Assembly (NCBI GenBank): GCA_008802785.1
Contig: VUYT01000011.1
Span: 551,827 to 615,826, forward strand
From: Symmetrospora coprosmae
Taxonomy: Eukaryota > Basidiomycota > Cystobasidiomycetes > Symmetrosporaceae
Length of the DNA stretch: 64,000 nt
Reading direction: 5' to 3'
The notes under the pieces were generated by a model, which did no database searches, was not told the DNA's origin, and saw only the letters and a list, made by a program, of their open reading frames with translations. Every line of letters begins with the position of its first letter. Positions within the stretch are counted from its first letter, which is position 1. Positions 12,817 through 63,908 of this stretch are shown piece by piece. The translations under genes were made by a program, and so were the position numbers.

Positions 12817-15800
12817 ATGGCAGCCATGGCCTCGATGACCACCAGCAGCGAAGACGATGAAGTCCATGACCACGCAGCTCCACCACGGCGCCGTCTCGCT
12901 CCGAGCAGAAGATCCACCACAACGGGTGCCAGCTCCAATGGCGGCACAACAACCACTACCACCACCGCCGTGACTCCGTCTGGGCGCATCGTCGTCCTGC
13001 CCTCAGCCGGCTCGTCCCGTCCCGCGTCGAGGTCGGGCTCACCCGCACGCAGACAGCTGCGCTCGCTGCCCTCGGTGCCCGCAGTGAGCAACTTGGAGGT
13101 GCACAGCGACAAGCTCGTCAGGCTCGAGGAGGATCTCGCCTTCATCAACGACCAGCTCCTCCAGCAGCAGCAGAGGCAGCAGCAGCGGCGCGCAACCGGC
13201 GACCAGGAGGAGGCCGGAGCGAACGGGGCGGCGATAGAGGAAGACACAGGCAAGGCAAAGGAGTTGGCTCTTCCTGTACGCTCACGCTCTCCTTTTACGC
13301 ATCGAATCCACCTCGCCAAGCTGACCTCATCGTCTCTTGCCGTTGTCCTTCACCCTGCCCACGTGCGAACTCGCTCGCCCGGACAGTCGACCAGACCCGT
13401 CGCGACCGTCACCTACGCGGAAGAACCCCTGATCCAGGCAGGGATATCAGACTACACCTTCATACCACTCGACGCGGGCGGACTGCTCGGCAAGGGAAAG
13501 TTTAGCTCGGTCCAGCTGGCCTGGAAGAACGGGCAAAAGGTGGGGCAGGACCACACGCTCCGCTGAAACCATATATGACCGTCCAGCTGACCCTTCTGGC
13601 GCACTCCTGGGAATCCCACAGTTCGCGGTCAAAATCACGCCGCTGTACCCGCACCACACCCTCATTGCCACGCGCCTCCTGCGCGAGCCCACCATCCTCG
13701 CCCAACTGCCCTTGCACCCAAACTTGGTGCGCGTGTACGAGAGCATCCGGACACCCGCGTACTTCTACCTCGTCGAAGAGTTCCTCGATGGGTACACGAG
13801 CCTCGAGTCCTTCGTCGCGAGCCAGCCCAATTCGAGGCTGTCACTGGACGCAGCGACGCACGTCTTCAAACAGCTCGTATCCGTCGTCCGGTCCGGACTG
13901 CACCAGCCAATACAGATCGCCCACCGGGATATCAAGCCGGAGAACATACTCATACATCCAGAGACGCTGCACATTACCCTCCTCGACTTTGGACTCGCCA
14001 CGCACTTCAGCTGGCGACAGCCCAAATTGACGACGTGCTGCGGCTCGCCGGCGTTTCATGCGCCAGAGCTGTATCTCAGCCTGAAGAGTCCGCCGGGGCG
14101 CGTCCGATATTGGGTGGGTGCATGCGAGCTAGACTTCCGCTCCGCTACGCTACGTGGTTCAAGCTGACGCCGCGACGGGTCCACAGGGTCCCGAGATCGA
14201 CATATGGACGATAGGCGTCACGCTCCTTCGCTGTCTGACAGGGACAAGGTACCCACTGGGCGTATCGCACACATCTCTGCAGCACATGGCCGACAAGACG
14301 GTCGACAGCCTGCTCTCGATACCGCACGCAGAGTTCCGGCGCACCCTCGCCGGCCTCCTCGATATGGACGGCGACAAGCGAATCGCCTTTTTTGCAGCTT
14401 TGCCCGCAGAGATAGACGAGTACCCGCACACGCTCGACACCAAGCACATCCACGTCACGAATTTTGACGGTCCTGCGCACGCACTCGGCTCGGCTGCAGC
14501 GGCAGCGGCATCGACATCGGCGACCAGCGATAAAGACAAGGAGGCAGGCGACGGCCGCGACTTCAAGAACACAACCTTCATCCAGACGCAGCCGAAGCAC
14601 AGCCTGCAGATGCCCCTCATTTCGCCTCCGCAAAGCCCGGCCATGTCACCCAACGCGAGCGCCAGCGCCCTCGCCGCGCTGACTGCGCCGCTGGCCGGGC
14701 CTGCTCCAACTACGCCTGGCGCAGGGACACACGCGCTCCTCGCGTCCCCGCGCTCGCGCTCGCAGAGCCGGGATCGCCTCGCTGCGCACTTTGCTGCCGG
14801 GCTCGACCTGTCCCTGCACGAGCTGCCGTCGGCTGGGTCCGCTGCCCCGGCCGCCGCTGGCACGGCATCAGCAAGTAGCAATGGCGGTGGTGCTGGTGCG
14901 CCTACGCCAGTCGCCCTTGCGCATCAGCAGTTTTTCACATCGCCTGCAGGACCGAAGCAGCCCCGGCCGCCCTCCTCCCGCACTGCCTCGACATACGACC
15001 CGCACGCATCTGCCCTCGCCATCGCCGCATCGCAGGAACTGCTCCTCCTCAATCCTAGCGGGGAACCAGCAAAGCGCGCCATATCATTCGTCAAGTACGC
15101 GTTGCGATGCGCGGGGATCCTGTACCATGTCCAGCCGCATCCGCCTGTACGGCCGGCGTCTGCATGGCAGACGCAGTCGCAATCGCAATCGCAGTCTCAG
15201 TCGCAGCCGCAGCCGCAGTCCGGGAGCCGCCCAGGTACGAGCAGCGGCGATGCAGCGACTGCAGTGGGAGAGGATCTCCCCTCGGCCGAAGCGCCGCGGA
15301 TGCATCTGTGCGCGCCCGTCCTGCACTGCATCCAGGTCCTGCCGAAGGAACAAGTGCACCCCAGCTCGGCCGCTGCTACCCTCCTCACCTCGCAGCTCCG
15401 CCCGGCCCTGTCGCGCTCGCAGACGGCCGGGCCGTCCTCGTCCGCCTCTACGCGCAGCCCGTCCGCCCCACCGGGCTCGACAGCAGCGAAGCGGAAAGCA
15501 GAAGCAGCGGCCGCTGCGGCCAAGCTGCGCGTGCTCGAGTTCTGGATACAGATCGTCCCTGTCTATGCAGTCGTGCGCCACAGTCCCGTGGCGGAGCGGA
15601 AGGCGCTCGCCAGTATCAACGAAGGCGGAGCGACGGGGGGAAGCAAGCGGCGCGGAACGTCGCGCTCTAGAGGAAGAGATCTGGAGGAGCGGCGCTGTTC
15701 TAAGCTGCGAATTAGAGTGTCGGACGAGGCTGCTGTGCCTTTTCTCGTCAAGGCACTCGGAGTAGGCAAGCTGTCCGAGGAGGAGAGTGCGACAGAGCCA

Positions 15801-21969: not shown

Positions 21970-24900
21970 TTATCGCCTGCTGGGTGCCCCTCCACCCTGG
22001 CCAACACCAGAAGAGGCAGCAGGAGCTGACCCAGATCCTGCCGCCTGACTCACAGCTGCCTTTCTTTCCCTAAAGCAGAGGAACTGCAGCGCAGTCGCTC
22101 TCCTCGCCTGCGTGAGCGTCAGCTTGAGCTGTTCGAGCTCGGCCTGCAGCTCGCCCGCGCCCTCTCCCGGCCGGCCGCCGGGCCTGTACTTTGCCGAGAT
22201 GATCTTGTAAATCTCCTGCAGCGTGGCGTCGGCCCCGCTGCTGACGTGCGTGTTGAGCGTCTGGTGCAAAAACTCCATCTCGAGCGTCGCCTGCAGCATC
22301 CCGCCCATCCCGAAACTCGCAACCTGCGAGAAACAGGCCAGAGCGTGCTTGGCCACCTCTTGTACGAGCGCCCCAATCGTCCGCGTGACGAGCGAGCGCG
22401 CAATGGCCGTGACTTGGGCGTGGACGAGGACGAGCGAGAGGAGGGCATCGTAGATGTATGGGTGGACGGCTGCAAGCACAAAGGAGCGACGCATGTCGGC
22501 ATCGATGCTCCGAGGAGCGACACGCGCACGCAATGTGGAGAGAAGCTCACCCGTCGGCTTGGGCGCTCGATGCCAATCAATGCCATTCCCAAGCACGCCC
22601 TTCTCGATGGTAGCCGCCAGCGCGACGCTCCTGCCCTTGATGTAGTCGTCAAACAAGATCTTGTCCAGCTGGCCCACGACATCATTCAGCGTCTTGCTGT
22701 CGCTGCCCATGTCAATCTTGAGTGCCGTCTGGAGCTGATCCGCAATCCGCGGAATGATCTCGGTGCGAAAGTGCGACAGATTCGAGACGGTCAGAAGGAT
22801 GCGGACGTCCTGTTGCGTGCACGGGAATGGGCAGATACGGTCAGTTGAGAATGTCGACGCCCGTACTGGGCAGATTGGATCACCCACCCTATCCCGCACA
22901 TCAACCTGCTTTGCCTTCCCAAGCGAGACGGGCTCAGTGCCATTGCCATTGATGTCGCCAGTCGGCAATGTCGCATCGGCAACGACCGTTCTAGGTGGCA
23001 ATGCCGGCGGACGAGGCGCATTCTCCACAAATGCGACGTGGACAAGACCATCGAGGAAGTCATACAGTGCGTCCAGATACGTCGTATGTATCCTCCTCGC
23101 AAAGTCCGTGGGGATGTTGTCGTTGCCCATGCGCCGGAGGAGGGCGACACCGCTCTTTGCCTCCATGAAGAGGTTGCCTGCGCGCTCCTCGGACCCGCCG
23201 GACGCGCGGTAAGCCAGTCGGGCGGCACCGCGCATGTAGCGCTCCATGCGCGCAAGGTACACGGTGCGCGACAGCTCTTCGGAATCGAGGGACCAGTCCT
23301 CTAGCCGCCAGAAGAGCTTTGCGTCGCGCACCCACAGCCCGCACACGCTCTCGAGGAAGCGGAACCGCACCGCGAGCAGGAACTCGCGCAGGTTCCCCTG
23401 CACCTCGCTCCCGATCGCCGCGAGCGCCCCAATGTCGTTCGTCGCGTCCGTCAGCTCGGACAGCGAGCGCAGCAGGTGCACACCCGCCGTGAGCGCATTC
23501 GAGTTGGCAGGGACAAACCCCGGGAGCGGCGCGAGGACGTTGCCGGTGCCGTCGCCGTGCAGCTTGGGCGAGACCTGGTGCGTCGCGCTCGACAGGGTGA
23601 AGAAGTCCGAGAGAAGCGCAATGTAGAGGTTGATGATTTCATTCAGCATGACCTTGATCTGTGACGAGCTCCGCCGTCCCGTGTGGTTCTTGTCCTGGTG
23701 ATGATCGCGATGCCCTTGCTTCTTGCGGTCGTGGGGATCCTTCCGCTGGTATCGTCCCTCCATGTAGCCCTTCGCCACCTTCCAGAAATTCGGGAGGGTT
23801 TGTAGCAGGATCTCAGAGAGATTGTGCACCACCTCTGCTAGCGACTTCCAGACCTCCTGTCCGCTGCCTTTCTCTGTGTGCCATCGAAGGCTGGTCAGCT
23901 CCACTGCTCTAGCCAGGGTGCACGCCCCTCTGCCACGCACCAAGGATGCTATCTTGACCCGGAGATTCGAGAGCTAGCACCCCGGCCTTGAGGTCCGCCG
24001 ATCTTGCTGCATCTTCCGTAGATGCTGGAGAGACGAGCTTCTTCAAGACGCTGTTGAACTTGGTGGTACTGTTTGCGTGCGAGTAGCGGAGCGCCTGCAT
24101 GATGTGGTGATGCTGCGTGTCAAAGTAGATCCAGACGGGCTCGCCAGTCGGGTCTAGCTCGAGCAGGATCCTGTGCAGGGCGCCGAGTCAGCTCGGGCTC
24201 ATACTGAGGCAAGTCGACGGGCAGGAGCGACGCACTCGATCGTCTTCTCCACCTCCTCCAGGCTCCTCTTTGGGTCCCGCAACCTCTTGCCCAGCATCGT
24301 CCTCAGGTCGCTCATGGTCCGCTCGACCTGCCCCCATACCTTTTCAAACACGCGGCGGTGCTTCTCGCCCTGCTGCTCCGTCATGGTCGTGCCCGGCGGC
24401 AAGCCGAGGAGCGCGCCAGGCCGCGAGTCCAGCAGGTACTTGCCCTTCTTGTACGCCGACAGCGCGGCGTCGTACCGCCCCGCAGAGACGGCCTCGCTCA
24501 GCACGCCCGGCAGCGTGAAGAAGAACTTGGAGCGCTCAAAGATGCCCAGGGTGCTTCGAAGCCGGTCGGCCTTGAGGCGGGCTTCGAGGATCGGGTTCCA
24601 GACGGCGTCTGCCTTCGCCTGGGCGGCTGTGCGCGCAGACGGGACAAGAGTCCAGTCAGAACGAACGGCAGATCCTGTCCATAGACCTATACTCACCCTT
24701 GAGCGCCTCCTTGAGATCTCCGACGCTGTAGTCGGCTTCCTTGCTCAGGGGACCGAGCTTCATCTCATCGTAGACAATGCCCGACGCAGCCTTGATCCCA
24801 ATGAAGCGATCAAAGTTATCCTCGACGAGCCGCTGTATTGCGCTCTCTCTGCCCTTGGCGGCCTCCTGCAGCCTCTCGCGGCCGTACGCGAGGTCGTCCG

Positions 24901-27723: not shown

Positions 27724-29172
27724 GCTGCTACTGATGATTCGTATGGCAAGGACAGCCGTGAGTCAGCGCAACGTGTGGGCAGGAGCAGAGCCAGAGTTGT
27801 CTCGACTTGCAGATGGTGCAGGACGGACGAACGAACCCCTATCAGGCAACTTGGCTTTGAAGGAGGAAGGAAGCAGGATATGGCCCGGAAAGGAGGTACG
27901 AAGTAAGCTGAGTCCTGGTTTCTCCGTCGTGCTGTCGAAGCGCCCGAGGTGGAGCCCAAATGACGGGGACCGGGCGTCCTCGATAGTGATTGCCGGCTTA
28001 TCGCGCCGCTGCTGGACGAGGCGTACCCGACGCTGTATGTATGGCGGCCGCAGGCTGGACGGACAGCAGATGTCCCGCTGAGTGAGCCTGTATGATGTTG
28101 CTGATGCTGAGCCAAAAGGCGAAAGAGGTGCGGAGTTTTGCGTGACTTGGGCGAGGCGATCCTGCTCCGATAACCAAGAGGGTATCCCTTCCCTCCTCAG
28201 CTCTACAAGGGAACGACGCCCTCTGTCCAGTATAGGCAGGCTTCACTGATGCGCCTGCACTGCTCTGTGTCGATGTGCTTGTGCTTGTGCTGTCGGTGCT
28301 CTGTGCAGACACTTGCTTGTACTGCAGCTGCATCGACGGCAGTCCTTCCCCATGCATGGATGGATGTCAACGCATCCCTTCCCTCCGAGGCCCGGCTGAG
28401 GTGGAGCAGGCGGCACTCGGCCAACAGATGCAATGCGGCGCCCGCAGGTGCTACATTACCTCTTGAGCGCTATGCACCGGTAGGTTCGGATAGTTGCACT
28501 TGGCTGACAACTGGCTGAAGGTGCCTGCTTGATGAGAGATGCGTTCCTGGAGCGACCCGAGGCAGGCAGGCCTCAGCGCGCGCGGTTGCGGTACCGCGCC
28601 GTGCTCATCCTGCATCAGGGAACTATCCTCGGCGGGGGCAGGAAGCACGCCTGCGATACGATGTGCACAAGTATGCGCCCCCTGGATCATTCCTGCTCCT
28701 TTCAGAACCTCCTGGCACCAATGCCTTTACTGGGATCGTGCTCCGGCTCGCCCTGCGCCTGGCTGCTTGCCTAACGCCGCCCAATCTCACACGGACACAT
28801 TGGCTAGCTCACGGCTGTGAATGTGAGGATGCCGTACTGGCTGAGCGATCGTCCACAGATCCGCCAGGGAGCCGTTTATGGTGGTTTGGACGAGGTGAGG
28901 TGGAGACATGGGATAAGGCCTGGCCGGGCCGGGCCGCTGTCGATCCCAGGACGCGGGGCGCATTGCGCAGGGTGGTAGACACCTGCGACACAATGCCGTG
29001 TCACATTCTACCCGCATTGAGCGTGTGCTTCTGGCATGGCCATGTGCTGATGAGTGCGCGCAAGGAGGAAGGCCGACCTCCTCCTCGCTCGACCTCGACC
29101 CCGCTGGATTCGCACTGTCGCATTAACGTTACCGGCTGGCTCCGCTCAACGACGTGGAAACAGTCAGGAAAC
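27724..29172. promoter_or_regulatory. Divergent intergenic region between BTB and WW-domain genes
   Basis: This 1.45 kb region is unusually long for this window. It contains TGCTTG repeats around 28275-28290, several short ORFs without codon pattern or homology-like features, and two in-frame ATGs (28993 and 29050) ahead of the WW-gene start. I support no gene here; it probably holds two promoters and 5' leaders. Confidence 0.4.
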
Positions 29173-32100
29173 ATGGCAGAAGAGGAGGATAGGCTGGACT
29201 TTGGCGAGGAGTACGACGATGAAGAGGATAGAGAATCCGTCATCAGCTTGGGCGACGGCGAGGGCGCCCAGGAGGTGCAGGGTATCGCTCAGGCCCAGCA
29301 GCAGAAGCAGCAGCAGCAGCAGCAGCAGGAGCAGGAGCAGCACCACGACAACGCAGCGCAGCAGGGCCAGCCGCATGAGGCCCTGCTCGAGCCAACTCAG
29401 GACACAGGGTTGCCTCTGCCAGAGGGCTGGGAACGTCGGACATCCCGCTCGACGGGTGAGGTATACTATCTCAACACCATCTCGCGTACCACCAGCTGGG
29501 ACTTGCCTACGACAGCTGCATCAGCGCAGGTAGAGAGGGCAGAGGACGAGGCTCCGGCGGTAATAGCGACAGCGGATGCGGTTGCGGATGCGAATGCGAG
29601 CGCGGCTGTTGCCCTCCTAGAGGCGTCAGACGCTGCTACCGACCGAAACGATGCTGGCCGAGGCCTGCCTGCCGCTGGGACAGAGACGGAACGGGGCGCC
29701 GAAGGATATGAGAACGAGACGGACGAGCGCAACGGACACCGCGGGACGGGCACCGACATGGCGTCCCAAAGAGACATGCACCCTGCTGCACAGGTTGAGG
29801 AAATATCCTCTGAAGTTTTCGCAGCCCCGTCAGCGCCGGTCAGCGCCGGACCCTCAGCATGGAGTGAGCGCCTCTTCCGACTCTGCCCCTTCGTTCTCAA
29901 CCCGATGTTCGCGAGCCGCCTGCCTGTGTGATTCGCGGCGATCGCTCGGGCCCAGCGCAAGCAAGGTCCGCCAGCATGCAGCGCCCTCGGTGTTAGTGCA
30001 ATGCACGGCAGGAAGATCGGCCACGTCTCGGGCCAGCCCGCAGCTTCATGCCGCGATGCAGCCAACGCATCGAGGCAGCACTGCACGGGGTTGCGAGGCA
30101 TATTCTCTCAGCTGCATCGGCGGGAGGCCTATTCGGCGATGCACAGGCAGGCGGCGCGGCCTGGATTGTCGCAACCCTTGGCTCTACACGAGAGAGCACG
30201 GACACGGACATCAGCTCACTTCGCCCCTCCCCCCCCCCCCCTCCTCTCTCTCTCTGCTTTCCGTGTGTTTCCACCGCGCCTGCTAGAACGCGGACCGCAA
30301 GCGCCTCAAAGCCGGGTATTCCGCACCGGATCATCGGCCACACAGCTCTCTGCGCTCTCGCAGCCCGCAATTGACCGTCCGCCACATGGCCCGTCCGCAG
30401 ACGCCCGTCTCGCTGCTGAACGAGCGAGCGCGGCTCGCGCAGAACCAAAGTTGCGAGCATGGGGCGCGAGAGAGCCTGCTGCGACCAACGCAGCAGTAGC
30501 GCCAACGAGCGTACCAGCAGAACCTGCACCAAGCTCGATTGTCGCCTCAACGGCGACCGCAGCCGCATCGGACAAGAGACCGCCGCCCACGGGGCCTCGC
30601 GCAAATAGGCGCGAGCCGTCACCGCCTGCGCCTGCGCCCGCGCCTGCCGCGCCCGCTGAGCAACAGGCCCAGCCTGCATTACCCCCTACAGGCCCACGCA
30701 GCATGCGCCCGTCGGCCGTCCAGATCGGTCGCACGCTCGCACGAGGACCCGCCTCGGCCACCACTCCCGCCGCAGAGGCCGCCGTTCCCACCGGCCCGCG
30801 CAGGCGCAGCGTCGCAGCGGCCCCGCATGACCGGGAGCGCGAGCGCGAGCGTCCCCCTGAGCGAGAGCGCGAGCGGGAGCATCGACCTGCACCTTCGTCT
30901 CGCGGCCCGCCAAAGCCCGCAAGTCTCGACAACGGTTGGCCGAAGAGGGCTCTGGCACCTGCACCGCCTTCAACGACTACTTCTGCTTCTGTCTCCACAG
31001 ATCGCGAACCGGCACGAGAAGGGCCCACACATCCAGCTCCTGCCCCTGCCCCTGTCGCTTCCACTTCCGCAGCTAGAGTGTCAACACGAGAGGGGCCGTC
31101 TGGCCCGGCACCGTCTCCTGAAGTCTCTCCGGCGAGTGTCGCTTCCAAAAGCTACCAGATGCCGCCGCCAGCTAAGCCTGAGCGCGCACCGAGAGGCGTA
31201 CCTCGCGATAACGGATGGGGTGCACGCGCTGCGAAGGTAGCTGATGCGCCGCGAGAGGTGACTGACCACCCGCCATGCGATGCCTCACGGACGCCAACTG
31301 ACGCTCAAGAACATCCATCGCAGCCGGAGCGTCAGTCGCAGCAGTTTGATTCCCGCTTCGCACCAGAACGGAGCGCTCGAGCGATCTCGCGTGATCGAGT
31401 GACGGAAGCACCATCGGCAGCGCCTCCGCGCGACATTATCAGCACGGCAGCGTCTTCGACATCATCCAGGACCTCATCTGGCTTCAAGCGAGGAGAGCCA
31501 CTGCCGGACCAGCGTCTCGCTCTGAGAGCCGGCAGCGGCGGACCCAGGAGGCGCAGCGCACGCAGCATTACGCCACCGCCGCGCTCGCGACCTCTCAGCG
31601 TTGCGAGTGGGACGACACCACCACCGCCGCCCGCCAACCGGCCGATACGCGCGCAGGACGTTGTCGATCCGCGCAAAGTCCGTCCTGCAGCCGCAGCCGC
31701 CGCTGCAGTCGGAGAGGACAAGTCGCGCGAGATGACATTGTCGGCGTCAGTGGATGCACCGCCGCGGGCCGATACGCGCTCGCCCGCTCCTGGCCCAATC
31801 TCAGCTCCTCCCCCAGCCTTGGGCAAGCGCAGGAGTCCGTCGCCTTCACCTCTGCAGAGCCGCCTGGACGGCGGACGCCCTGCATCTACGTCGTTGTTCG
31901 CGCGCCTCGATCCGCGCGACGACCGCTATCGGCCGCAGCGTGAGCCCTCGCCCCCTCCGCCGTCGAAGCGGAGCAAACGCGATGGATACGACTCGGACCA
32001 CGGTCGTGGACACGGGCGAGGGCGCGGAGAGCACAGCATGGACGTGGACGAGCACAAAGCGCCGCACAGACGGTCGCTCTCACCTCCCTCTCGCCACGCT

Positions 32101-33817: not shown

Positions 33818-36360
33818 ATGAGCAAGGCGGGTTCCTCATCGCGAGGCGCAGCCTCGTATCTCGTTCGTCGTCTGAAGACCTCGACCTCGTCCTCGTCCTC
33901 GTCCTCGTCGTCATCGTCTGTTCCCTCTGGCTCATCGACTCCATCGAGCTTATCGTCGTCGTTGACGACGTTCCCGCCCAGCTCGAGCCCGAGCTCGAGC
34001 TATGCATCGTCGTCGTCGTCAGCAGCGGGGCGCCTGTCGTACTACTACGATGCTGCACTGTCGCACGACCACCCGCTCGCCGCCGAGCCCATTGTAGCCG
34101 AGTGGACGCTGTCGAGTTCTCGAGCGAGCTCAACAGAATCAGCTTCAGTATCAACTGGACATGGCAATGGCCCCGGACATGGATGGCCGGCGGGCAGCAG
34201 CGCTTTCTACCAGGGCAACGCACATCGTGCACGTCGCCGTGTCCCCACCGCAGCGTACCACCAGCAGCGGCACCAGTCTACGCAGTCCCAGTCGCATTCG
34301 CAGCCGCAGACGTCTGCGCAGCTGGCGGCAGGCTCCGGGTACACATCCCTCCGCCCGTCCTTCTGGGCATCCGCCAGCTCGCGCGAGCCAGCGCAGGAGC
34401 AGCCTCCGCAGCCGTCCTCTTCGTCCTCCTCCCCATCCTCGTCTTCGTCCTCATCTGTATCGAGTATATTCAGCCCGCTGCTATTCGGCAGCCCATCGAC
34501 GACGTCTGCCTCAACGTCCAGCTCGTCCGGCGCTTCCTCACCGTCGGGCCTCCCCTCGAGCACGAGCGGGATCCTCCCCGCCATCTCGTCCTTCATCTCG
34601 CCCTCGTCGCCCAGTCCACAGCCCTCCCATGCTCCGTCAAGCGCGGCAACAACATCAGCGTCGCCCCTAGCCCGCTTTGGGGACGCGACAAGCATTCGCG
34701 TGCCACAGCAGCCGGCGGTGCAGGGCAGCAGCAAGGCGCCCCAGCTCACGCTGCACCACGGCGCGTTTGGCATTCCCAAGCGGCCCAAGCAGGCGCCCAC
34801 GACGACAACCGCTCCTGCTCCTGCTGCTCCCGTGGCCACGCCGCGTCCGGCGAGCGTCAAGGGCAAAGAGCGGGCAACAGAAGTCGATGAAGCTGCAGTG
34901 GATGGAGATGGCGAGACTGCGAGCGACGCAGCACTGCTGGAGAAGCAGCTGCAGGAGCTCGAGGGCCCGCTGCTCAGCGTCCAAGTGGGCGAGGTGCGTT
35001 ATTACCCCTATGATTCGCATTTGCGTTCGGATGTGCAATGGCAGTAGCCTCGCCACCTCCGTCACAATGTGAGCTGACCCAGCTCATGTCATTCCCCACC
35101 CCACAGGACGCGTACTTTGTCAGACACGACTCGCTTGGCGTCGCGGATGGCGTTGGGGGCTGGGCGGGCAGGCGAGGGGCGGATCCGGGGCTATTTGCCG
35201 CGCGGTTGATGCACCACTGCTCGGCGGAGCTGGCCGCCTCGCTTCACGACGACCGGCATACCAGTGCGGTGGCGGGGAGCGAGGGGAGCTCAAGTGAGGA
35301 CGCGGACTCGGGGAAAGGAGGCGGGAGTGAGGGGCCTCAATTCTCGTTCGTCTCGGCCTCCTCGTTCTCTGCGTCCACCTCTACGATACCGAGCAGCAGC
35401 TCGCTACATCCGCCAACACCGGCCAGTGCGGTCGGCACGCAAGTCATAGCGCAGGCACCAATCGCTTCGTCCCGCGATGCGCCGAACGGCACTGCCAGCA
35501 CTGCTGCTGCTGCCGGCACCGATACTGCAGATCACGGTCAGGCGCATGCTCAGCCCCAAGCCCACGCGAACTCGCTCGAATCCCGCCTGCTTGCTTCGGA
35601 CCCGATCGAGCTGCTGCACCGGGCATGGGACCTGACGCTGACAGAGTTCTTCGACCTGAGCCTGACGGGCTCGAGCACTGCGCTCGTTGCCCTGCTGGCC
35701 GGGGACGAGCTGCGGGTCGCGAACCTGGGCGACTGCTCGTGCAGCATCATCCGCGGCAGCCCGCCCGAGTACATTTTCCGCTCGCAGGAGCAGCAGCACA
35801 GCTTCAACTACCCTTTTCAAGCAGGGACCAACAGCCAGGACACGCCGAGGAAGGACGGGCAGCGCTTTAATATCAAGGTCCAGAAGGGCGACATTGTCAT
35901 TCTCAGCAGCGATGGCCTCGTCGACAACCTGTTTGACGAGGATATCCTGGAAGAAGTGGAGGCGTTCTGCCCGCCTCCTCCTCCGCTCGGGTGTGCGCCT
36001 GCCATGTCCGCTGGCCCTTCTGCTGGCGGCAGCACGAGCGGTGGAACGGGCGACATGGGCGAGGAGACGGAAGCGTTGTCGAGCAAGGCGACTGCTTCTG
36101 CGACGACGGAGAACAGCAGCAGCAGTAGCAGCGGACAGCAGGACGCCGCATCGCCAACAGCTGGTTTAGGGATGGCAGCCTCGCTGAACCCGCAGGAGCT
36201 CTCACAGGCGCTCTGCGCGCGAGCCAAAGCCGTCTCGGAGGACCAGCAGGCTGTCGCGTCGCCGTTCCAGCAGCGGGCCAACGAGGAAGGAATCCATTTC
36301 GTTGGGGGCAAGCACGATGACATCAGCGTGCTTGTTGCTGTGATTGGGGACAAGGCGTAG
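33818..36360 (+). CDS. PTC7: PP2C-type protein phosphatase, PTC7-like
   Basis: This is a metal-dependent Ser/Thr phosphatase of the PTC7/SpoIIE-related subgroup, in yeast a mitochondrial enzyme acting on coenzyme Q biosynthesis. Exons 33818-34993 and 35107-36360 join in phase to 809 residues. The first 390 residues are largely Ser-rich low complexity (a TCG/TCC run at 33881-33919). The catalytic domain starts after the intron with DAYFVRHDSLGVADGVGGW, the DGVGGW being diagnostic for PTC7. Metal-binding and core motifs follow: STALVALL, NLGDCSCSII, ILSSDGLVDNL and, at the end, GGKHDDISVLVA. Two Ser/Gly-rich insertions split the domain, making it much longer than yeast PTC7 (about 340 residues). 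The N-terminus is Arg/Ser-rich and could be a mitochondrial presequence, but this is uncertain. Confidence 0.87.
33881..33919 (+). repeat. TCG/TCC triplet tract encoding polyserine
   Basis: A run of TCG and TCC/TCA codons encodes an almost pure Ser stretch near the N-terminus of the PTC7-like phosphatase. Confidence 0.75.
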
Positions 36361-47139: not shown

Positions 47140-47309
47140 TGCCGACATGCAAAAGGTACAAAGGCACGACTTTTGGCGTTGACCCTATATTGCGTACTGT
47201 CACTTGTTTGGACATGGGTAAAGCGCGCAGGAAATCCTACCAAGGACGACTGTACAGCGCTGCATGCGCGCCTGACGCAAAGCAGAGGAGAAGGCACGCA
47301 AGCTGCAAT

Positions 47310-49878
47310 TTACGCATCGTACGACACCCCAAAACCCTGTGCAAGGTAGTGATTGACAATCTGTGGGGGGTGTACCACAATAGTGTGAGCCAGGGGCCCC
47401 TACATGGGCAATCGTGGTATGCTCCGAGACCCACCTCCGGATTCTGAGCGTCCTCCTTGCTCAGGTAGACATATGTGGGGCCAGGCGCTGGCTGGCCTGG
47501 AGCCTGTCCCTGCCCTTGTGTCTGCCCCTGCGCGGCGTCAAAAGGCTGCTCGGCTGGCTCGTACCCGTAGCTCTGGTACGGGTGCTGCGAGCCGTTGCTC
47601 GAGCCGCTGGAGGCAGCGTGCCCGTCGAGCGTGTTGGGGTACGACGAGCCCGCAAACATGCCTGGCGTGTGGGCGTGGGGCTGGTGCTGCTGGTGATGGT
47701 CGAAGAGCGCCGAGGGCGGCACCTGCGCAGCGTGCGTGTTTGGGACCTCCCATCTGCCGAGCGAGAACTTGCGCGAGAACGAGGGGGACACAAGCGACAG
47801 GTTGTCGTTCAGCCCGCCGCCCTTGAAGAAGCCCGTGAACGGCGTTGGCGCCATTTGGTCGCCGCCGCTGTAGCCCGTCGGCTGGTTGAAGCCACTGTGG
47901 TCTAGACTTCCGAACAGCGCCGACATGCCGCTGCCTGTCGCTGTCCGGGGCGACGGCGCGATCAGCGAAGGGGGCATGGTCGAGAAGCGCGCAGGCGCCA
48001 TAAAGTCCGATGGAAGGCTGCTGCCCTGCGCGTACGGGTCGTGCGCGTACATGGCGTTGAGAGCGCTCCCCGGCATGCCCATGCTGGGCAGGGCGTAATC
48101 GCTCGGCACGGACGTCGCGAGCGTCTTGCTGCGCTTGGACCGCGTGGCTGCTCGGCGCCTCGACGATGGTCCGCCATCGTGCTGCTCTGGGTGGTACAGG
48201 TCCATCATGTCGTCTGGGTCGCTGCCTGACCTGGAGTGGCCCCTCGAGTGCGAGTAGGGCCCGGCGACAGCGAGCATCCCGTTCTCGTCGACAATGTCCT
48301 GATACTCCGGTCGCCCGCCGGCGCTCTCGGCGTTTCGCGAGTTGACGCTCTTGCTGCGGGAGCGCGAGCGCGCACGAGAGGCAGACCGATCGCGCCCTTC
48401 AATCTCGTCCTGGATCTTCTGCTGCTGAACCTCTTCCTCAATCTGCTCGTTGGTCAGGTCGTGCCCTTCCAGCAAGACGCGCGCGACGACCTCGCTCTTG
48501 CGGTCCTCCTCGGCAAGCTCTTCGTCCTCGGCTGGCTTGCGCCGCCGCTTCTTGCTCGCCGCTGCGGCAGCCTCGCGCGCTTTGCTGAAGACCGGGCGGT
48601 AGCGGTAATTCGGGTTGTTGCGCTTGTGCTCCTCCTTCTCCTCGAGCGCTTTGCGCTCCCAGACTGCCTTCTCCTCTGGCTTGAGGCCCTTCCACAGCTG
48701 GCCGACGACGCGGCTCACTTGTCGGTGGTCGATGATGCCCAGCGACTTGGGGAGGAGATTGTTTGTGCATGCGTAGCTCCGGAAGAGAATAAAGGCGTTG
48801 CGGGGGCGCTGTGCGCGAGACGGTAGAGTGTCAATTGACTGGCTCGCAGAGTCCTCCACGCTCGGACGCGACCCACCTTGACGTGTCCTTCGGGCACTTT
48901 CTTCGCATGCGAGGGCTTGCCCGTGCTAGTTACGCGGATGTTGGACTGCAGCTGGGGCGCGACGGTAGGCGAGACGAGGGGGATCGTGAATGAGTGCTCG
49001 CCCATCTTGATGGTTCTCGCAGGCAGATCCGAGTTGGGCACGCTCGAGTTCTCCTTGTACTCGTCGCTGGACTCTTCCCTAACGAAATCGAACGACAAGC
49101 CCGGGATGGCGTCAATGGACATCTCCTTGGCGTGCTGGCCACGTCGGGTGCGGATGGGCCCGATGCCCGGCGTTGGCTCTGGCATGGCGGGCAGCGCGAA
49201 AGGGAGGCTCGACCCAGGCGAGGACGAGAGCATGGGCGACGAGCTCGTTGCCAGGTCAAAGTCGAGGGTCTGCGGCGAGGCGCGCAGCGTGGTCTCGGCT
49301 GCACCGTCTGTGCCGAGAGCGAATTGTGCGTTACCATGTGTAGCAGGCTGCGCAGCGAGGGAAGCGAGAAGCCCTGCTGCGTGGCCGCCGTTGTAGCTGT
49401 CGGTCGACCCGGCGTAGGACCCCTCGGACGGAGGTCCGCCCGAGCCCGGAGCGTCGTGACCGATATCGAAGAATGGCAACGTTCCCTGTGGCGCTCCGAA
49501 GGGGGTTGTTGAGCGCTGATTCCCTCCGTACTCGAAAGCAGAGGGTGCTGGCGAGGGCGAGCGGTCCTCGGCGACGAAAGTGATGTTGTCGAGGTCGCCC
49601 AGACCTCCGAGAACAGCCGGGGTCGCTGGCTGGAACGAGAAGCTTGGGTTGAAGGCGTTCTGGCGGGGCAAATGTACAGAGACCAGGTCAGCAACGACCA
49701 TTCTGCTTTGTGTAGCTGGATTCGAAAAGCAGACACTCACACTCACCACCTGAACAGCTTCAAGCGAGGTGGGCAGGCCCGACCCGAGCATGGACTGCTC
49801 GAACCCGGCAGTCGCTGCTTCCGAAGAAAGAGCACTGCTATTGCCGCCAGCAGGGCTTTCCTTCGTTCGACTGTCCAT
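47310..49878 (-). CDS. HMG-box transcription factor (MATA-HMG type)
   Basis: This sequence-specific DNA-binding protein has a fungal mating-type-like HMG box, the class that includes Prf1 and Rop1 of smut fungi and Ste11 of fission yeast. Start at 49878. A Ser/Pro-rich region precedes the box and contains ANTHAQ-free acidic stretches. The box is assembled across an intron near 48810-48890: EGHVK joined to RPRNAFILFRSYAC, then DHRQVSRVVGQLWKG, EEKAVWERKALEEKEEHK and NPNYRYRPVF, the full signature of the MATA-HMG subgroup. It is followed by a basic KKRRRKP and an RS-like stretch. A last intron (donor near 47447) leads to IVNHYLAQGFGVSYDA and a stop at 47310; without this splice the frame would run into unrelated sequence. 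Its specific role (mating or other) cannot be read from sequence. Confidence 0.87.
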
Positions 49879-56895: not shown

Positions 56896-57344
56896 TCACT
56901 TGCTCTCCTCTGGGTCGTCGTAGCCTGTCAGGTTGGCATCCCGTGCCCGGTTGGGTACTGGGAGCAGCGGTGGGGTAGCGATACAGGGCATCAGCATGTA
57001 TTGACGCATACGCTAGCTCTGTTCGCGCCATCCTGTGTGCTGGACCTGGGCCAGACTCACGAGGAAAGGTGGTCGGCGGTCGGGCAATGGGGACATAGCC
57101 AAAGTAGTTCTTGCGGATGGGCGGGACGACGAGGACAGCGACGGGGCCTGTGGTGCGTTCATACGAGGCACTCTGCTTCAGTTGCTGTTCCCCGAAGCTT
57201 CCCCTGCCCAGTGATGCGAGCATGCTCACCGACAGCTCCGACGAGGACGGCGTAGAAGAGGGCCGGGTTCTCGTGCGCCTGCCGCTGCATGTAGCGATAC
57301 GACGACCTGAACGGGTTCACGAACGAGCGCGCAATCGTCGCCAT
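56896..57344 (-). CDS. nuo9.5: NADH:ubiquinone oxidoreductase 9.5 kDa subunit (complex I accessory)
   Basis: This is a small accessory subunit of mitochondrial complex I found in fungi. Exons 57230-57344, 57061-57147 and 56896-56924 (complement) join in phase to 76 residues. After an N-terminus with FVNPFRSSYRYMQRQAHENP comes the single membrane segment (ALFYAVLVGAVGPVAVLVV), then PPIRKNYFGY and a Pro-rich end YDDPEESK. Size, single TM and the P-P-[IL]-R-K motif match the Neurospora 9.5 kDa subunit family. Confidence 0.88.
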
Positions 57345-57958
57345 CCTGGATGCCGTTGCTGTGCGATGTGGGATGTGCCGAGGTGAAGCAAAGACCAAGC
57401 TGGCTGGCCGGCCCTCAAGCTCCGCTCAACTGGACGAACGAAAAGGCCAGGCAATGAACGGCGAACGACGACCAGAACAGCGCAGCGAGGGCCTACTGAC
57501 GATCGAGCTCACCTCTCATGCAGGATAGCCTGCCCCCACTGATGACTGCCAGCTGACCGGTCTCCTCCAGATCCTCCTCGCTTCACTGCCGCTCCTGTCG
57601 ATGTCGACGACCCTCCCCCAATACTCCAGTACACCCGAACGCAGCTGCTTGCTTGACTGCTCTTGTCCGCGTGACCTGTCCCCGACAAAGCAGCCTGCAA
57701 GCAGGACCCTTTGAGCTTCCTCTTGCCACTGCATCGCCGCAACTCCCCAGAGCCGTGAATGGGTTGCGCGCTGCGTCCCTCTGTGTTGGCCAAGGCCTGG
57801 CTGGCTGTGCGAGCGCAGAATGGTCCTCTACTCGGCGCGACTGAAAAGAGCCCGCTCCCCACTCCACTGCACTTGCCTCTGCCTCTCCAAGCCCGGTTCA
57901 GCCGTACACTCCCCCTAGAACATCCATCAATTTCAGATAGCGTTGGTAGTCCGCCTCC
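57345..57958. promoter_or_regulatory. Divergent promoter; includes block shared with the downstream paralogue
   Basis: This 614 bp non-coding region lies between the complex I subunit and the first tandem paralogue. Its distal part (57695-57812) is duplicated ahead of the second paralogue. Confidence 0.5.
57695..57812 (+). repeat. Duplicated upstream block, copy 1
   Basis: This stretch of about 118 bp closely matches 61061-61172 along its whole length (shared cores include ACCCTTTGAGC, CATCGCCGC, ACTCCCCAGAGCC and GGCCAAGGCCTG). Each copy ends about 150-170 bp before the ATG of a tandem paralogue, so it marks the duplication of promoter plus gene. Confidence 0.85.
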
Positions 57959-60343
57959 ATGTTTCACCATCGTCGCCCTTCGACTACGCCCCCCGCTGCC
58001 AAGAGAGTCGCTACTACTCACCCGGGCGCGACAACAGCCTCGGCCCTTGGGAAGAATCTGCCACCTCGAGACATCTGGCAGCCAGTGAGTGTAGCATCGG
58101 CTTCGCGGTTCTATCGCCGGAAGGAGTTGAGCTGAAATCGCATGATAGTGTTTCGTGACCACGGATCAGAACGGGCTCATCACATGTAGCTTTGGCAACG
58201 GGATGCGCTTTGCGGATATGGACTCTTCCCGCGTCAGGATCGCAATCATCCATCTCTCGCAGAATGCGATATCACGACCGACCACAATGCAGATAGACCT
58301 TCGGTGCGATGCGACGGGAGTCGTAATCATCCGGGGTGAGGGCTTCATGGTACGATCTCGCGACCCAGCCTTCAAGCCGCCATCGGTCTCTACCGCAGAC
58401 TGGACTGGGTACTTCCATGTCTCATTCGATTCTCCACAGGCGCAAAGCTCTACACGACGCGCGCCATCGGCACCGGGGACCCCGCGGAGACCCTCTCCAG
58501 AAGTGCAGTCTGATGCGCGAATCCGTACGCCAGCGCCACAGGCGTCAACATTCATGCGTAGATCACCGTCCGCGCCAGCAACGCTGCGCCAGCCATCTTC
58601 GGCACGCCCAGGTGCTTCTGGCAGCACTGCTGCATCCTATCCGAGTGCCGGACCGCTTTCACGGTCAGTTAGTCCAGCTACAGCTTCAATGCGAGGTCCT
58701 CAGCCCCCTCGCGCCATGTATAACGCACCTCAAGCTTCGTTACATGCCGGCACACCCATACGTGGAACCAATAGGGCCTGGTACGATGTATGTGTTGGGC
58801 TTACCGTACAGTGGCTGAAGATGCTCGCTGATGTTCGCGCCACCGTCGTATCAGATCCAGGTAGTGACTCAGGGCACGGTTGTACAAGCGCTGTCACTCG
58901 GAAACCAGAACGACTTGCGTGGATACGACGTCGATTGGCATGGGGCATACAGCGGGCTCATCGAGACAATACGGAATCGCCCCTCCAATGGAAGATTGCT
59001 GTCAACTTCTCCTGCACAGATACAGGTCGATCGCTCTCTAACCTCGAACAAACGGGTCGTGAGGCAGTTCCGATGCAAGACCAACGCTCGAGTGCAGCAC
59101 TGGAAGATTTACTCATTGGAGCCCCACATCGGAACAACGTTAGATAGCCAGCCTGCTACGGGAGAGCATGCCGCGACTCCGGCAGGGTCCACAGGCAAAG
59201 GCAAGGCAGTCCAAACGACAAGCGGTCGAACGTCTCGATCTGGCCCTCCGACCCGCGACCCGGACAGCCTTGGACCACAGCCTCTTCGCGCCTCGTCTAA
59301 TGTTCCTCAGGCTGCACTCGATTCTGGAATCCCTGTAAACACCGAACTGGGCAGCTGGCATGACGTACGTTCGAGAGGTCCCTGCATGGCGATCGATAAT
59401 CTTCTTGCCTGACTTTCGAAGCCTACAGATTGATATACAGGTCACGCAAGACCCGACACTCGGTTGGCGTATCACACTTTCGCTCGATCGTCGAACTTCC
59501 TTGGTCGACTGGACGCTGGACTGGCGTGGGGCCTATGCCTGGCTCACTCAAAAGCTGCTGAAGCGCAGCTCCAGAGACCGATTAGGAGCGGACTCTCCTG
59601 CTCAAATACAGGTGGACCAGAGACTGAATTCGATGGGTGGGCGTATCGTGAGGCGATTCCGATGCAAAACGAGACCCAACACCAGGGATTGGACACACTA
59701 CATACTGCCGGAACCACCACTCGGCACGGGTGCGTTTACCCAATCGACCTCCATCGAAAGCGTCGAACCTTCAGGTCTGTCCAAGGGCAAAGAGAGGAAG
59801 CACGCTCTATCGGTTAGTGTATCGCCTTCTCGTACTGGCTCGCCTTCTCGCAGCGCGAACGGCCCGCAGCCGCCCAAAGCCACGGGCGAAAGGCCATCTC
59901 AGCACCAACAAGACAGCAAGCTGCTAGCCAGTCAGGGACAAATCACGTTCCATAAGGTCTGTCTTGGCTGATGACTCTAGACAGATCTTCGAGCATGGAG
60001 CATGATCGCGATCTGGCTGACATGGTCTGAGTTTCGCATCTCTTGCCGACAGATCTGGCTCAAGCTCCGGGAGAATGGCGAGCCCTATCTGTCGCTGGAC
60101 GAGTCCAGGTTCCTACCAGGGTGGACGGTAGACTGGCACGACTGTTACCCGGCTGTCCTGATCACCCTGCGGCGGATGAGGCAGGAGCGCGGCTGGACGG
60201 AAGACACGGAGTTCCGCATCGGGCTCACTTGGGTGGATGACGAGAGCCAACCACGTCGTGTCACCAAAATCCAGTACATACCAAACCCCGCCAGAAGAAA
60301 TTGGCAAGAATTGCCAGTCAAAGGTCTCGCCGAGAGGCAGTAG
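57959..60343 (+). CDS. Tandem paralogue A: unknown protein with N-domain plus three repeats of an undescribed domain
   Basis: Exons 57959-58084, 58149-58787, 58855-59364, 59429-59956 and 60053-60343 are all phase 0 and give 697 residues. Exon 1 is basic and Pro/Thr-rich. Exon 2 starts with an N-terminal domain containing CDATGVVIIRGEGFMVRS, followed by a Ser/Pro-rich linker. Exons 3, 4 and 5 each begin with one copy of a repeat domain of about 80-95 residues: a strand beginning I-x-[VLI], then LSL, a core L-x-G-[WY] or L-V-D-W, a conserved W six or so residues later, Y, and after a variable loop an [AF]-x-I-x-[VL] strand and a late W. Linkers in exons 3 and 4 again carry GPQP followed by a Trp-His-Asp or Phe-His-Lys end. 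No signal peptide or TM is seen. I know no family that matches; function is unknown. Confidence 0.78.
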
Positions 60344-61339
60344 GTGTCGGATTCTCGCGCTCTCGCGGGGCTGCTTTGAAGCGGGGGATCAGGGGTGGGA
60401 GTGATCCTTTCACTAAGATCCGATATCGAGGCTCTTACAAGTGGCAAGAGCCCCTCCTGTAGGTCTGGAGAGCAGGCTGACAGCCTAGCCAGGCGAGCTA
60501 TGCCATTCCCCTAAATATGAAACCCCTAGATGCGCATTGCTCCCTTCGGACCGTGTTGTACACTGTCTGCAAATGTGCCCACGCACATGCTGCGATGTTA
60601 GCGTGAGCCCTCTGGTCTTTCGTGGTCGAATGTCCCCTTTGCTACCAAGAGCTGCGTGACCTCGTCACTTGCGCGCTGCAGGCTGCACTGTGAGAGCTCG
60701 ATGACAGTAGACATCGCTTGTGATCCCCTCACTTGCAAGTGGCAATGCGACCTGGTGCAGGGCCGCCACTGAGGTCGGCCGGCTCTCATGCTCTAGTCAA
60801 CCCGTCAGACTTCGACGAACGAGCAGAACAGCAGTACTGCATGCATGGGAACTGCTCACCGCAAGTAGCATACTCGATAGCGTGCCCTGGCTGACCAAGT
60901 TTTTATCTCACAGCGTTCACACTCCTCGCGTCAACTGACCTGAAACGCACCGACTGACTGTCCCGCAGATCCGGTTCCCGCAGATCCGCGCTCACTGCCA
61001 CAACTAGCTGCCGGCTTGTCCGCTGTCTGCGCGTGACGTGCATCCGGCAGACCAGTCAGCATGCAAGACCCTTTGAGCGTCTGTTGCCACCACATCGCCG
61101 CGACTCCCCAGAGCCATGAACGGGTCGCGCGATGCGTCCCTCCGTGTCGGCCAAGGCCTGACTGGCTCTGCGACTGTCGACTGGCAACTCTGCACACGAC
61201 GACTACAAAAGCTACCTGCTCTGCTTTTCGCTTTCTGCCTCGGCTCTGCGATCCTCGTCCGTCACTGAGTCAAATCGCACTTCCCCGATCTACGTACCCT
61301 GACACGCCCGCCCACATCCCTCTGCGTCGACTCGTGATC
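60344..61339. promoter_or_regulatory. Intergenic region between the tandem paralogues
   Basis: These 996 bp hold the 3' flank of paralogue A and the promoter of B. The decamer CAAGTGGCAA occurs at 60438-60447 and 60736-60745, the second overlapping the palindrome ACTTGCAAGT (60731-60740). The duplicated block described separately lies at 61061-61172. No gene or domain remnant is visible. Confidence 0.5.
61061..61172 (+). repeat. Duplicated upstream block, copy 2
   Basis: This is the counterpart of 57695-57812, lying about 170 bp upstream of the paralogue B start codon, in the same orientation. Confidence 0.85.
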
Positions 61340-63908
61340 ATGTCTGGAATGCGGTCATCATCATCACCCTCGCCGCCACGAAAGCGCGTAGACGTACGCA
61401 AGTCTCCGGAGGCGGAGAATATCGACTTGCAATCCCGGCTTAGCGATACGACGTGGCTACCTGTGAGTTGTATTAGGGAGATTTTGGCGGTCCTACCCTA
61501 ATCTGGCAAGGTTGACAATGCCATTCTGCAGGCTTCGGTCAAACCTCGGGTTGTGGGCAATCCAGCGACCTTACAGTACTTCTTCACGGGCATCCTTCGG
61601 ATCCCTCTGCATCAGCAGGCCTATGTGCAGAATGCGCTGGCGGGCCTCTGGCAGCAGGTCAGTGCCGAGACGCTGCACGTAGCTGTACTTTGCGACCGAG
61701 CCAGCGGCGCTCTTGTCATTCGCCGCGGTGGCTTCACCGTCCGGAGCACCCATGCAGAACTCCATCCGCTACATGTGGCCCAGAACTTCCAGTTCGACGT
61801 AAACTTGGTTCCGGTCGTGCCAACCGCACCGCGAGCATCACCGCCTGTACAGGCAGGTGCACCTCGACCGCCGGCACAGCCGACGTCCGGTCGGCCTCCG
61901 AACTATGCATCCGCACATTCGCGACAAGCGACGCCAACAGGCGGGCCATCTGCACGACCTCACTCTGATGGGTCTGCTGGTTCACAGCCTCCACAGCCGC
62001 TGAACATGCCTGGAATGCAACGCGATAGTTCGCAGCTAGGACAACAGCCCTGCATCGTATTTCAGCACGCGTGTGCTTGGCACGAAGTGAGTCGCTGTCA
62101 AAACCGGAGTGGATCAAATGAGCTGCGCGAGATCTTCTGCGGCAGGCTGGAGATACTGACCATGTTCGCTGGTTGCAGATATCTGCAGTGCGGCCTATGG
62201 CTGGCGGACCCATCACACTGTCATTACGCGGCAACACCACACTGCGTGGATGGCAGCTGGAGTGGAGAGACCAGTATCCGCAGCTATTGCGAGCGCTTTC
62301 GGACGAGTACAAAGGAAAGCGTTCCTCAAAAGTCGTACCAACAGTCGAGATCTGCGTAACGGTGGCCGGGCCTCGGACTGTCCTGCGAGCGAGATGGAAG
62401 TCAGATCGGTCTGGTCAACGGTGGCGGAGGGAGATCGGCCTTGTGGCGACCGGTCAGCCAGCACCCAGGCCCCAGCCCGTGCCTGCGACCGAACGTTCGT
62501 CTCCTGCTGCAGTGGCGCCACAGCTATCGGCAGGCGTACAGCCATCCGGACCACGGCCTCTTTCCACTACCCCTCTCAGATGCGCGGGGTTGGCACCTAG
62601 CTCGGCACCGAGCTCTAGCGCTAGCGCTGCGCCCCGCCGGACCAGCCCTCCTCGAACATCTCAGTACACCGCCATTCAAGACGATGGTCCGCAACCGCCA
62701 GCGTGGGATGACCCGACCCAACGCGCCCCTATTCCTCAGGGCTGGCAGCCAGCCACATCTAGCTGGCACGGCGTGAGTAGTTATGACCCTGATCGCCACG
62801 TATTGCCCAGCTCTTCTTGATGCCAGCTGAAGAGACGGTGGCTGATCGATGCTTTTCCAGATGACGGTCTGGCGGTCAGGACAAGACAACTCTATCTCCC
62901 TCTCCTTGCAGGACAATGTCTCTTTACGAGGGTACCGCTTGGTCTGGAATCACAAGTTCCGGGCATTATTGGACGAGCTCGACAGGGATCATCGGAGCCC
63001 AGAGACGAGGAGATATGTCCCTATGGTCCAAATCTGCGTGTCGGACAGCGAGCCGCGAACGGTTCACTACGCACAATGGAAGAAGCCGGGCTCAAATAGG
63101 TGGAGAAGAACGCTGACCCTGGTAACTCTGACTGCCACGGCTGGTGCATCCTCTTTCTCTTCGCTTCGGCCTATGGCAGCACCATCATCCGCAAACGCAG
63201 TAGGCCGGACAGGCCCTTTATCCGCAGGGTCCGAAGCGACTGGCTACAGGTCCGCAGTCTCGGGACAGGAAGCGCCTGGTGGAGGGCCGCCACCTGCGCC
63301 TGCCGCGCAATCTGCGCCAGGCTCTGGCAATGCGGCCACTTCTTCACGACCTGACAAAGGAAAGGCTCCACTGTATCCACCGTACAGTCAGGCGCCTGCC
63401 GCTCGGCCACTGCAGTCTAGCTCTCCACCTCCCCTGCAACCGCCAAGCGTGTCCGAACCGAGGAATCGCCCTGGCATCGAGGCTGGCGAGTTGGCTATTG
63501 ACGATTTGAGCGCTAAGTGGCACAGCGTAAGCTCGTTTCAACTGATACCTCAGGGTATTGCGGGCCTGCTTCATAACGCTGGCCATTTTCGGGTGCTCCA
63601 CTTCGCAGATCTGGATCGACTCGAACGGGTCTGACCCTAATCGAGGCGGCAACAAGTCATTGCTTTCGCTTCGTCAATCTACGACCCTGCAAGGATGGAG
63701 ACTGGAATGGGGTGAAAGCTACCCAGCTCTGATACGCAAGATTAGAGGCAAACGAGCCGGGAACTGGCTCGATGGAGATTCCCTTCTTCAGATCAAAGTC
63801 AGCCGCAACGTCGATCCGGCAGGAGCACGCCGTGTAAGTCACCTGCGCTTCAAGGAGGAGGCGGACAGGATAGCATGGACAGTGTGGGATTTCGCCAGGG
63901 ATCTTTGA
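61340..63908 (+). CDS. Tandem paralogue B: unknown protein with N-domain plus three repeats of an undescribed domain
   Basis: Exons 61340-61462, 61532-62086, 62179-62772, 62861-63526 and 63609-63908 are all phase 0 and give 745 residues. The layout mirrors paralogue A exon for exon. Exon 1 is a basic leader with RKRVDVRK, ending TTWLP. Exon 2 is an N-terminal domain with CDRASGALVIRRGGFTVRS and a Pro/Ser linker. Exons 3-5 each begin with a repeat domain (LSLRGNTTLRGWQLEW; LSLQDNVSLRGYRLVW; LSLRQSTTLQGWRLEW). The three copies in B are more alike than those in A. Linkers contain GPQPP and K-G-K-A motifs and end in a Trp-His pair just before the intron. No signal peptide, TM or catalytic motif is evident. 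The gene ends 92 bp before the window edge, so further copies could lie beyond. Confidence 0.8.

What the first reader, a model, noticed from the sequence alone, without database searches (positions are those of the whole stretch)
57959..63908. Tandem pair of genes for an apparently undescribed multi-repeat protein family
Two adjacent same-strand genes encode proteins of 697 and 745 residues with identical layout: basic leader, an N-terminal domain (core CD-[AR]-[TA]-[S]G-x-[VL]-VIR-x-x-GF-x-VRS), then three copies of an 80-95-residue domain with the shared pattern LSL-x(4,6)-L-x-G-[WY]-x-[LV]-x-W-x(3)-[YF]. I can align all six copies by eye and cannot connect them to any domain I know. With no signal peptide, membrane segment or enzyme motif, they look like intracellular, possibly lineage-specific binding or scaffold proteins.
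Basis: partly seen in the sequence, partly recalled or inferred. Interest (0 to 1): 0.9.

Follow-up and report, generated by a model that had tools for sequence, protein, structure and literature searches.

The report
Unclassified fungal repeat-protein gene pair
Two neighbouring genes, probably from a fungus, encode related proteins that each carry three copies of a protein module matching no family in the libraries searched; they look like real genes, but what they do is unknown.

Summary
Two same-strand five-exon genes lie at 57959-60343 (690 aa, or 697 with another acceptor) and 61340-63908 (745 aa). Each of six ~90-aa repeats is recognised by a profile of the other five at 40.7-60.5 bits, against at most 10.3 bits for shuffles; the window holds no further copy. 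New here: modules are exon-bounded; in these models all eight introns are phase 0 and seven of eight donors directly follow W-x-x. A 170-bp upstream element is 80.6% identical between the genes, although synonymous sites look saturated (pS 0.72-0.80). Pfam, NCBIfam and PDB sequences gave no credible match. Models of two repeats (mean pLDDT 63.8, 71.7) show one helix and several strands, with no Foldseek match at E 0.001 or better. Best reading: intracellular beads-on-a-string multivalent binding proteins, ligand unknown. 'Lineage-specific' was untestable: no eukaryotic genome collection was available.

The parts
57959..60343 (+). Gene A, exons 57959-58084, 58170-58787, 58855-59364, 59429-59956, 60053-60343; 690 aa (697 if intron 1 ends at 58148)
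   Evidence: Open spliced frame, GT..AG introns of 64-96 nt, all phase 0; acceptors of introns 1 and 3 have an in-frame alternative
61340..63908 (+). Gene B, exons 61340-61462, 61532-62086, 62179-62772, 62861-63526, 63609-63908; 745 aa
   Evidence: Same five-exon, phase-0 layout as gene A; introns 69-92 nt
58284..58391 (+). Conserved core of the N-terminal domain, gene A
   Evidence: Local alignment score 58 with gene B; maximum 43 in 2000 shuffles
61670..61780 (+). Conserved core of the N-terminal domain, gene B
58855..59127 (+). Repeat A1
   Evidence: 59.8 bits with a profile of the other five
59429..59719 (+). Repeat A2
   Evidence: 58.0 bits, leave-one-out
60053..60322 (+). Repeat A3
   Evidence: 40.7 bits, leave-one-out
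62179..62442 (+). Repeat B1
   Evidence: 59.2 bits, leave-one-out; AlphaFold2 model, mean pLDDT 63.8
62861..63124 (+). Repeat B2
   Evidence: 41.1 bits, leave-one-out
63609..63905 (+). Repeat B3
   Evidence: 60.5 bits, leave-one-out; AlphaFold2 model, mean pLDDT 71.7
57643..57812 (.). Upstream element of gene A (147-316 bp before the ATG)
   Evidence: 80.6% identical over 170 columns to 61006-61173, E about 1e-38; no codon periodicity, no RNA structure signal, no Rfam match
61006..61173 (.). Upstream element of gene B (167-334 bp before the ATG)
   Evidence: Rfam searched only at gathering thresholds here

Best explanation
A tandem duplicate pair of genes for intracellular, multivalent binding proteins. 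Each protein is a string: a short leader, one small N-terminal domain, then three copies of a ~90-residue mixed alpha/beta module (predicted strands, one helix, then three strands), each preceded by a 76-131-residue linker rich in Pro, Ser and Ala that should be disordered. The modules most likely bind one kind of partner weakly, each on its own, and the string adds these up. Five of six modules are clearly basic (pI 9.9-11.1; A3 8.1), so an acidic partner, protein or nucleic acid, is favoured. The family grew by duplication of phase-0 exons (module plus following linker) and of the whole gene with its upstream region; the retained upstream element suggests that the two genes are still expressed together. 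Shown: open gene models, repeats, exon-module match, coding constraint, upstream conservation. Inferred: disorder, intracellular site, multivalent binding, acidic partner, shared regulation.
For: Repeat recognition well above shuffles in 6 of 6. Eight phase-0 introns at module borders, donors after W-x-x in 7 of 8. pN below pS in the 7 pairs computed. Linkers 14-19% Pro and 14-16% Ser. No strongly hydrophobic segment; pI of both proteins 10.6. One helix followed by three strands in both models. Upstream element 80.6% identical. GPQP shared by 4 of 6 linkers; no exact 4-mer was shared as widely in any of 60 shuffles.
Against: No ligand, expression or localisation evidence, and no disorder predictor was run. 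The models are of modest confidence (five-model mean pLDDT 49.3-63.8 and 54.6-71.7), so the fold is provisional. High Arg may reflect base composition rather than function. [ST]P counts are not enriched (13 against 12.1 expected in A, 10 against 14.0 in B). The other linker-motif statistics were weaker (1, 1 and 5 of 60 shuffles as good). G+C at third positions is not raised.
Confidence: 0.45

Rival explanations
1. Nucleic-acid-binding nuclear proteins: each basic module contacts DNA or RNA, and three modules on flexible linkers give affinity and span. This is a special case of the best explanation.
For: Module pI 9.9-11.1 and net charge +5 to +9 in 5 of 6; KGK-type basic patches in linkers.
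Against: A3 is nearly neutral (+1, pI 8.1); no match to any DNA- or RNA-binding family in Pfam or PDB.
Confidence: 0.22
2. Fast-evolving self/non-self or conflict genes (allorecognition, spore killing or similar) kept as a diverging tandem pair.
For: Strong divergence of the pair (25% identity in the best-scoring alignment) beside a much better kept upstream element; first two repeats cluster within each gene.
Against: pN is below pS in the 7 pairs computed; synonymous sites are saturated, so divergence may just be age; no population data; no hydrophobic segment.
Confidence: 0.12
3. Highly diverged members of a known domain family that sequence and low-depth models cannot reveal. This does not exclude the best explanation.
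For: Only six repeat sequences were available; model confidence is modest; Foldseek can miss a poor model; one BFVD entry had Foldseek probability 0.66 at E 0.21, TM-score 0.31.
Against: 0 of 6 repeats and 0 of 8 pieces match Pfam at E up to 10; models from two different queries find nothing at E 0.001 or better.
Confidence: 0.35

Closest known systems
Multidomain proteins built from phase-symmetric exons (exon duplication and shuffling)
   Same: One module per exon, all introns in the same phase (0), so a module plus linker can be copied without a frame shift.
   Different: The module itself matches no Pfam family. The comparison class is recalled; only a search listing was seen for it.
VC1805/VC0508 (PDB 2v1l, 2w56)
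   Same: Among the five top-ranked PDB entries or chains for both models.
   Different: E 0.51-1.7, TM-score by query length 0.19-0.26, rmsd 8.5-10.2: not a credible relationship.
Alpha-xylosidase 2xvg, best PDB sequence match of the repeat profiles
   Same: A 34-35-residue stretch.
   Different: E 0.79 and 0.93: chance level.

Membership tests
Any Pfam-A family | Match at the curated gathering score | tested here: not met
   0 families for 2 of 2 whole proteins at E up to 1; 0 for 6 of 6 repeats and for 8 of 8 pieces, two N-terminal and six repeat exons, at E up to 10
Any family with a solved structure | Significant sequence match to a PDB chain | tested here: not met
   No match for gene B's protein; repeat profiles best E 0.79 and 0.93; two-sequence N-terminal profile best E 0.036. 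Gene A's whole protein was not searched in PDB
Any known fold | Credible structural match | tested here: inconclusive
   0 matches at E 0.001 or better in PDB for 2 models and in BFVD for 1 model, but mean pLDDT only 63.8 and 71.7
Secreted effectors | N-terminal signal peptide | tested here: not met
   Hydropathy only: highest 19-residue mean near the N-terminus 0.06 (A) and -0.46 (B); no dedicated predictor was run
Exon-duplicated repeat proteins | Repeats delimited by introns of one phase | tested here: met
   8 of 8 introns phase 0 in my gene models; each of 6 repeats starts at an exon start
Lineage-specific family | Absent outside one clade | not testable with these tools
   No eukaryotic genome collection; one repeat each against viral contigs, prokaryotic contigs and phages found none
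N-terminal domain as a fourth copy of the repeat | Repeat profile scores it above shuffles | tested here: not met
   -1.1 and -2.0 bits, ranks 276 and 771 among 920 listed; profile comparison probability 0.1%, made with the flawed alignment A1

The most novel reading that the evidence does not exclude
A new small alpha/beta fold, confined to one fungal lineage, that spread as a phase-0 exon cassette (W-x-x | module + linker) and now makes multivalent binding strings. The N-terminal domain may be its oldest, most degraded copy: in both genes it too follows a W-x-P | phase-0 border, although the sequence profile does not recognise it.
Probability: 0.2. Interest if true: 0.6.

Novelty: new variant of a known kind. 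Interest (0 to 1): 0.35.

Why it matters
If the module proves to be a new fold, it adds a domain to the catalogue and a clean case of exon-by-exon module duplication in a fungus. The upstream element kept between otherwise diverged paralogues would be a good handle on a regulatory sequence. If the module proves to be a diverged known domain, this is an ordinary orphan family.

Tried and rejected
N-terminal domain as a degenerate repeat: not supported by profile. Upstream element as a small gene: in its 93-bp gap-free block the 12 differences fall 4/3/5 over codon positions, but five of six frames stay open in both copies, so this is not decisive. As a structured RNA: fold z-scores 0.60 and -1.18, with 147 and 21 of 200 shuffles folding as well; no Rfam match in the window at gathering scores nor at E up to 1 around gene A's copy; gene B's copy was not given the laxer search. 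Further copies in the window: none. Relatives in viral contigs (repeat B1), prokaryotic contigs (repeat B3) and phages (repeat B3): none. Literature: six searches by general terms (0, 3, 0, 0, 4 and 4 papers listed), none of whose titles concerns such a family; I saw listings and starts of abstracts and opened no paper. Without a species name these searches could not be specific. The species was not identified.

Full report
What was checked. The window is 61.2% G+C. No whole genome is held for it. Short GT..AG introns, Sec5 and an HMG box, a piece of an RNA-dependent RNA polymerase and a protein kinase point to a eukaryote, most likely a basidiomycete fungus; the last step is inference, and no call names a species.

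Gene models. Gene A: exons 57959-58084, 58170-58787, 58855-59364, 59429-59956, 60053-60343, 690 aa. Gene B: exons 61340-61462, 61532-62086, 62179-62772, 62861-63526, 63609-63908, 745 aa. I chose the splice sites by eye and checked that the frames stay open. Intron 3 of gene A also has a second in-frame acceptor, 12 bases further on (seen). In these models all eight introns are phase 0 and 64-96 nt long.

Reality of the repeats. A profile from five repeats recognises the sixth at 40.7-60.5 bits in 6 of 6 cases; the best of 999 shuffles of each reaches 7.9-10.3. In a six-frame scan of 1551 stop-to-stop pieces the six repeat exons score 93.6-113.2 bits (they are in the profile) and the next piece 5.2. 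Eight columns are invariant in the first alignment: L, S, L, L, W, R, V and W, though that alignment misplaces one strand of B1 and B2. By a script of the Nei-Gojobori type, pS is 0.72-0.80 and pN 0.38-0.50: synonymous sites look saturated and the proteins constrained. That script was given 6 of the 15 pairs of repeats and the one N-terminal pair. G+C by codon position is 0.583, 0.567, 0.593 in A and 0.631, 0.592, 0.579 in B, so third positions carry no coding signal of their own.

Anatomy beyond the finding. Each repeat begins at the first codon of an exon, and in four of six cases the exon continues into the linker that leads to the next repeat; A3 and B3 end the proteins. The three residues before the donor are WQP, WYD, WHD, FHK in gene A and WLP, WHE, WHG, WHS in gene B: Trp at the same place in 7 of 8. 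The cassette is thus 'module plus linker', bounded by phase-0 introns. The linkers before the six repeats are 76-131 residues, 14-19% Pro and 14-16% Ser. GPQP occurs in 4 of 6 linkers (0 of 60 shuffles as good), but related statistics were weaker: exact 5-mer GPQPP in 3 of 6 (1 of 60), 5-mers with one mismatch in 5 of 6 (1 of 60), 6-mers with two mismatches in 6 of 6 (5 of 60). I treat the motif as suggestive.

History of the copies. A tree of the six repeats groups A1 with A2, B1 with B2 (86% support) and A3 with B3 (73%), with 99% for the split of A1 and A2 from the rest. With six short, diverged sequences this is weak. It fits an ancestor with two module types, followed by separate duplication, or gene conversion, of the first type in each gene.

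Upstream element. 57643-57812 and 61006-61173 are 80.6% identical over 170 columns, the only repeat that a filtered blastn comparison of the window with itself lists at E up to 1e-5. Its 93-bp gap-free block differs at 12 sites (87% identical), 9 of them transitions, spread 4/3/5 over codon positions; five of six frames are open in both copies. It shows no clear excess of RNA folding (z 0.60 and -1.18) and no Rfam match. Given saturated synonymous sites in the genes, either the element is under constraint or it was copied between the genes more recently. A promoter role is inference from its place.

Known families. Pfam: 0 families for 2 of 2 proteins at E up to 1; 0 for 6 of 6 repeats and 8 of 8 pieces at E up to 10. 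NCBIfam: 0 for 2 of 2. PDB by sequence: gene B none, repeat profiles best E 0.79 and 0.93, N-terminal profile best E 0.036 to a polyketide synthase and 0.073 to a viral capsid protein, not taken as real from a two-sequence profile. Viral contigs, prokaryotic contigs and phages, one repeat each: none.

Structure. The B1 model has mean pLDDT 63.8, the B3 model 71.7, with ten-residue means of 74-87 in residues 31-50 and 61-99 and low values at 8-18. Both give a helix followed by three strands, with other strands before the helix. Foldseek found nothing at E 0.001 or better: PDB best 0.95 and 0.51, BFVD best 0.10 (only the second model was run there). The highest probability in the 50 BFVD rows shown is 0.66, at E 0.21 and TM-score 0.31, for an entry without a name. 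Names near the top for both models (2v1l, 2w56) have TM-scores by query length of 0.19-0.26 and I give them no weight. The VIA-align library was not available.

How it may work. The anatomy, small modules on long and probably disordered linkers without membrane or signal segments by hydropathy, is that of a multivalent binding string. Five of six modules have pI 9.9-11.1 and both proteins pI 10.6, which favours an acidic partner, though base composition may also raise Arg. No step of this mechanism is shown.

Verdict. The claim of an undescribed family is consistent with the libraries on hand but untested against eukaryotic sequence sets, which matter most. Unnamed repeat families are common in fungal genomes (recalled, from no call), so I score interest 0.35. 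The odds given to the explanations overlap and do not sum to one.

Noticed in passing
57643-57812 and 61006-61173: Upstream element 80.6% identical between the two genes while synonymous sites look saturated; constraint or gene conversion.
   Followed up: partly
47240-48925 (-): HMG-box frame (Pfam PF00505, E 2.7e-11), about 9 kb upstream of gene A; a link to mating-type regulation is recall only.
   Followed up: no
448-1608 (+): Piece of an RNA-dependent RNA polymerase (PF05183, E 1.1e-6), so RNA silencing may be present.
   Followed up: no
21973-23973 (-): Exocyst subunit Sec5 (PF15469, E 8.6e-94).
   Followed up: no
28519-29928 (+) and 35014-36357 (+): WW domain (PF00397, E 3.1e-10) and protein phosphatase 2C (PF13672, E 3.1e-5) frames.
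   Followed up: no
57159-57425 (-): Short frame that resembles, by recall, a small complex I subunit; Pfam gave no match at E up to 0.1.
   Followed up: partly
13433-14164 (+): Protein kinase domain (PF00069, E 2.8e-26).
   Followed up: no
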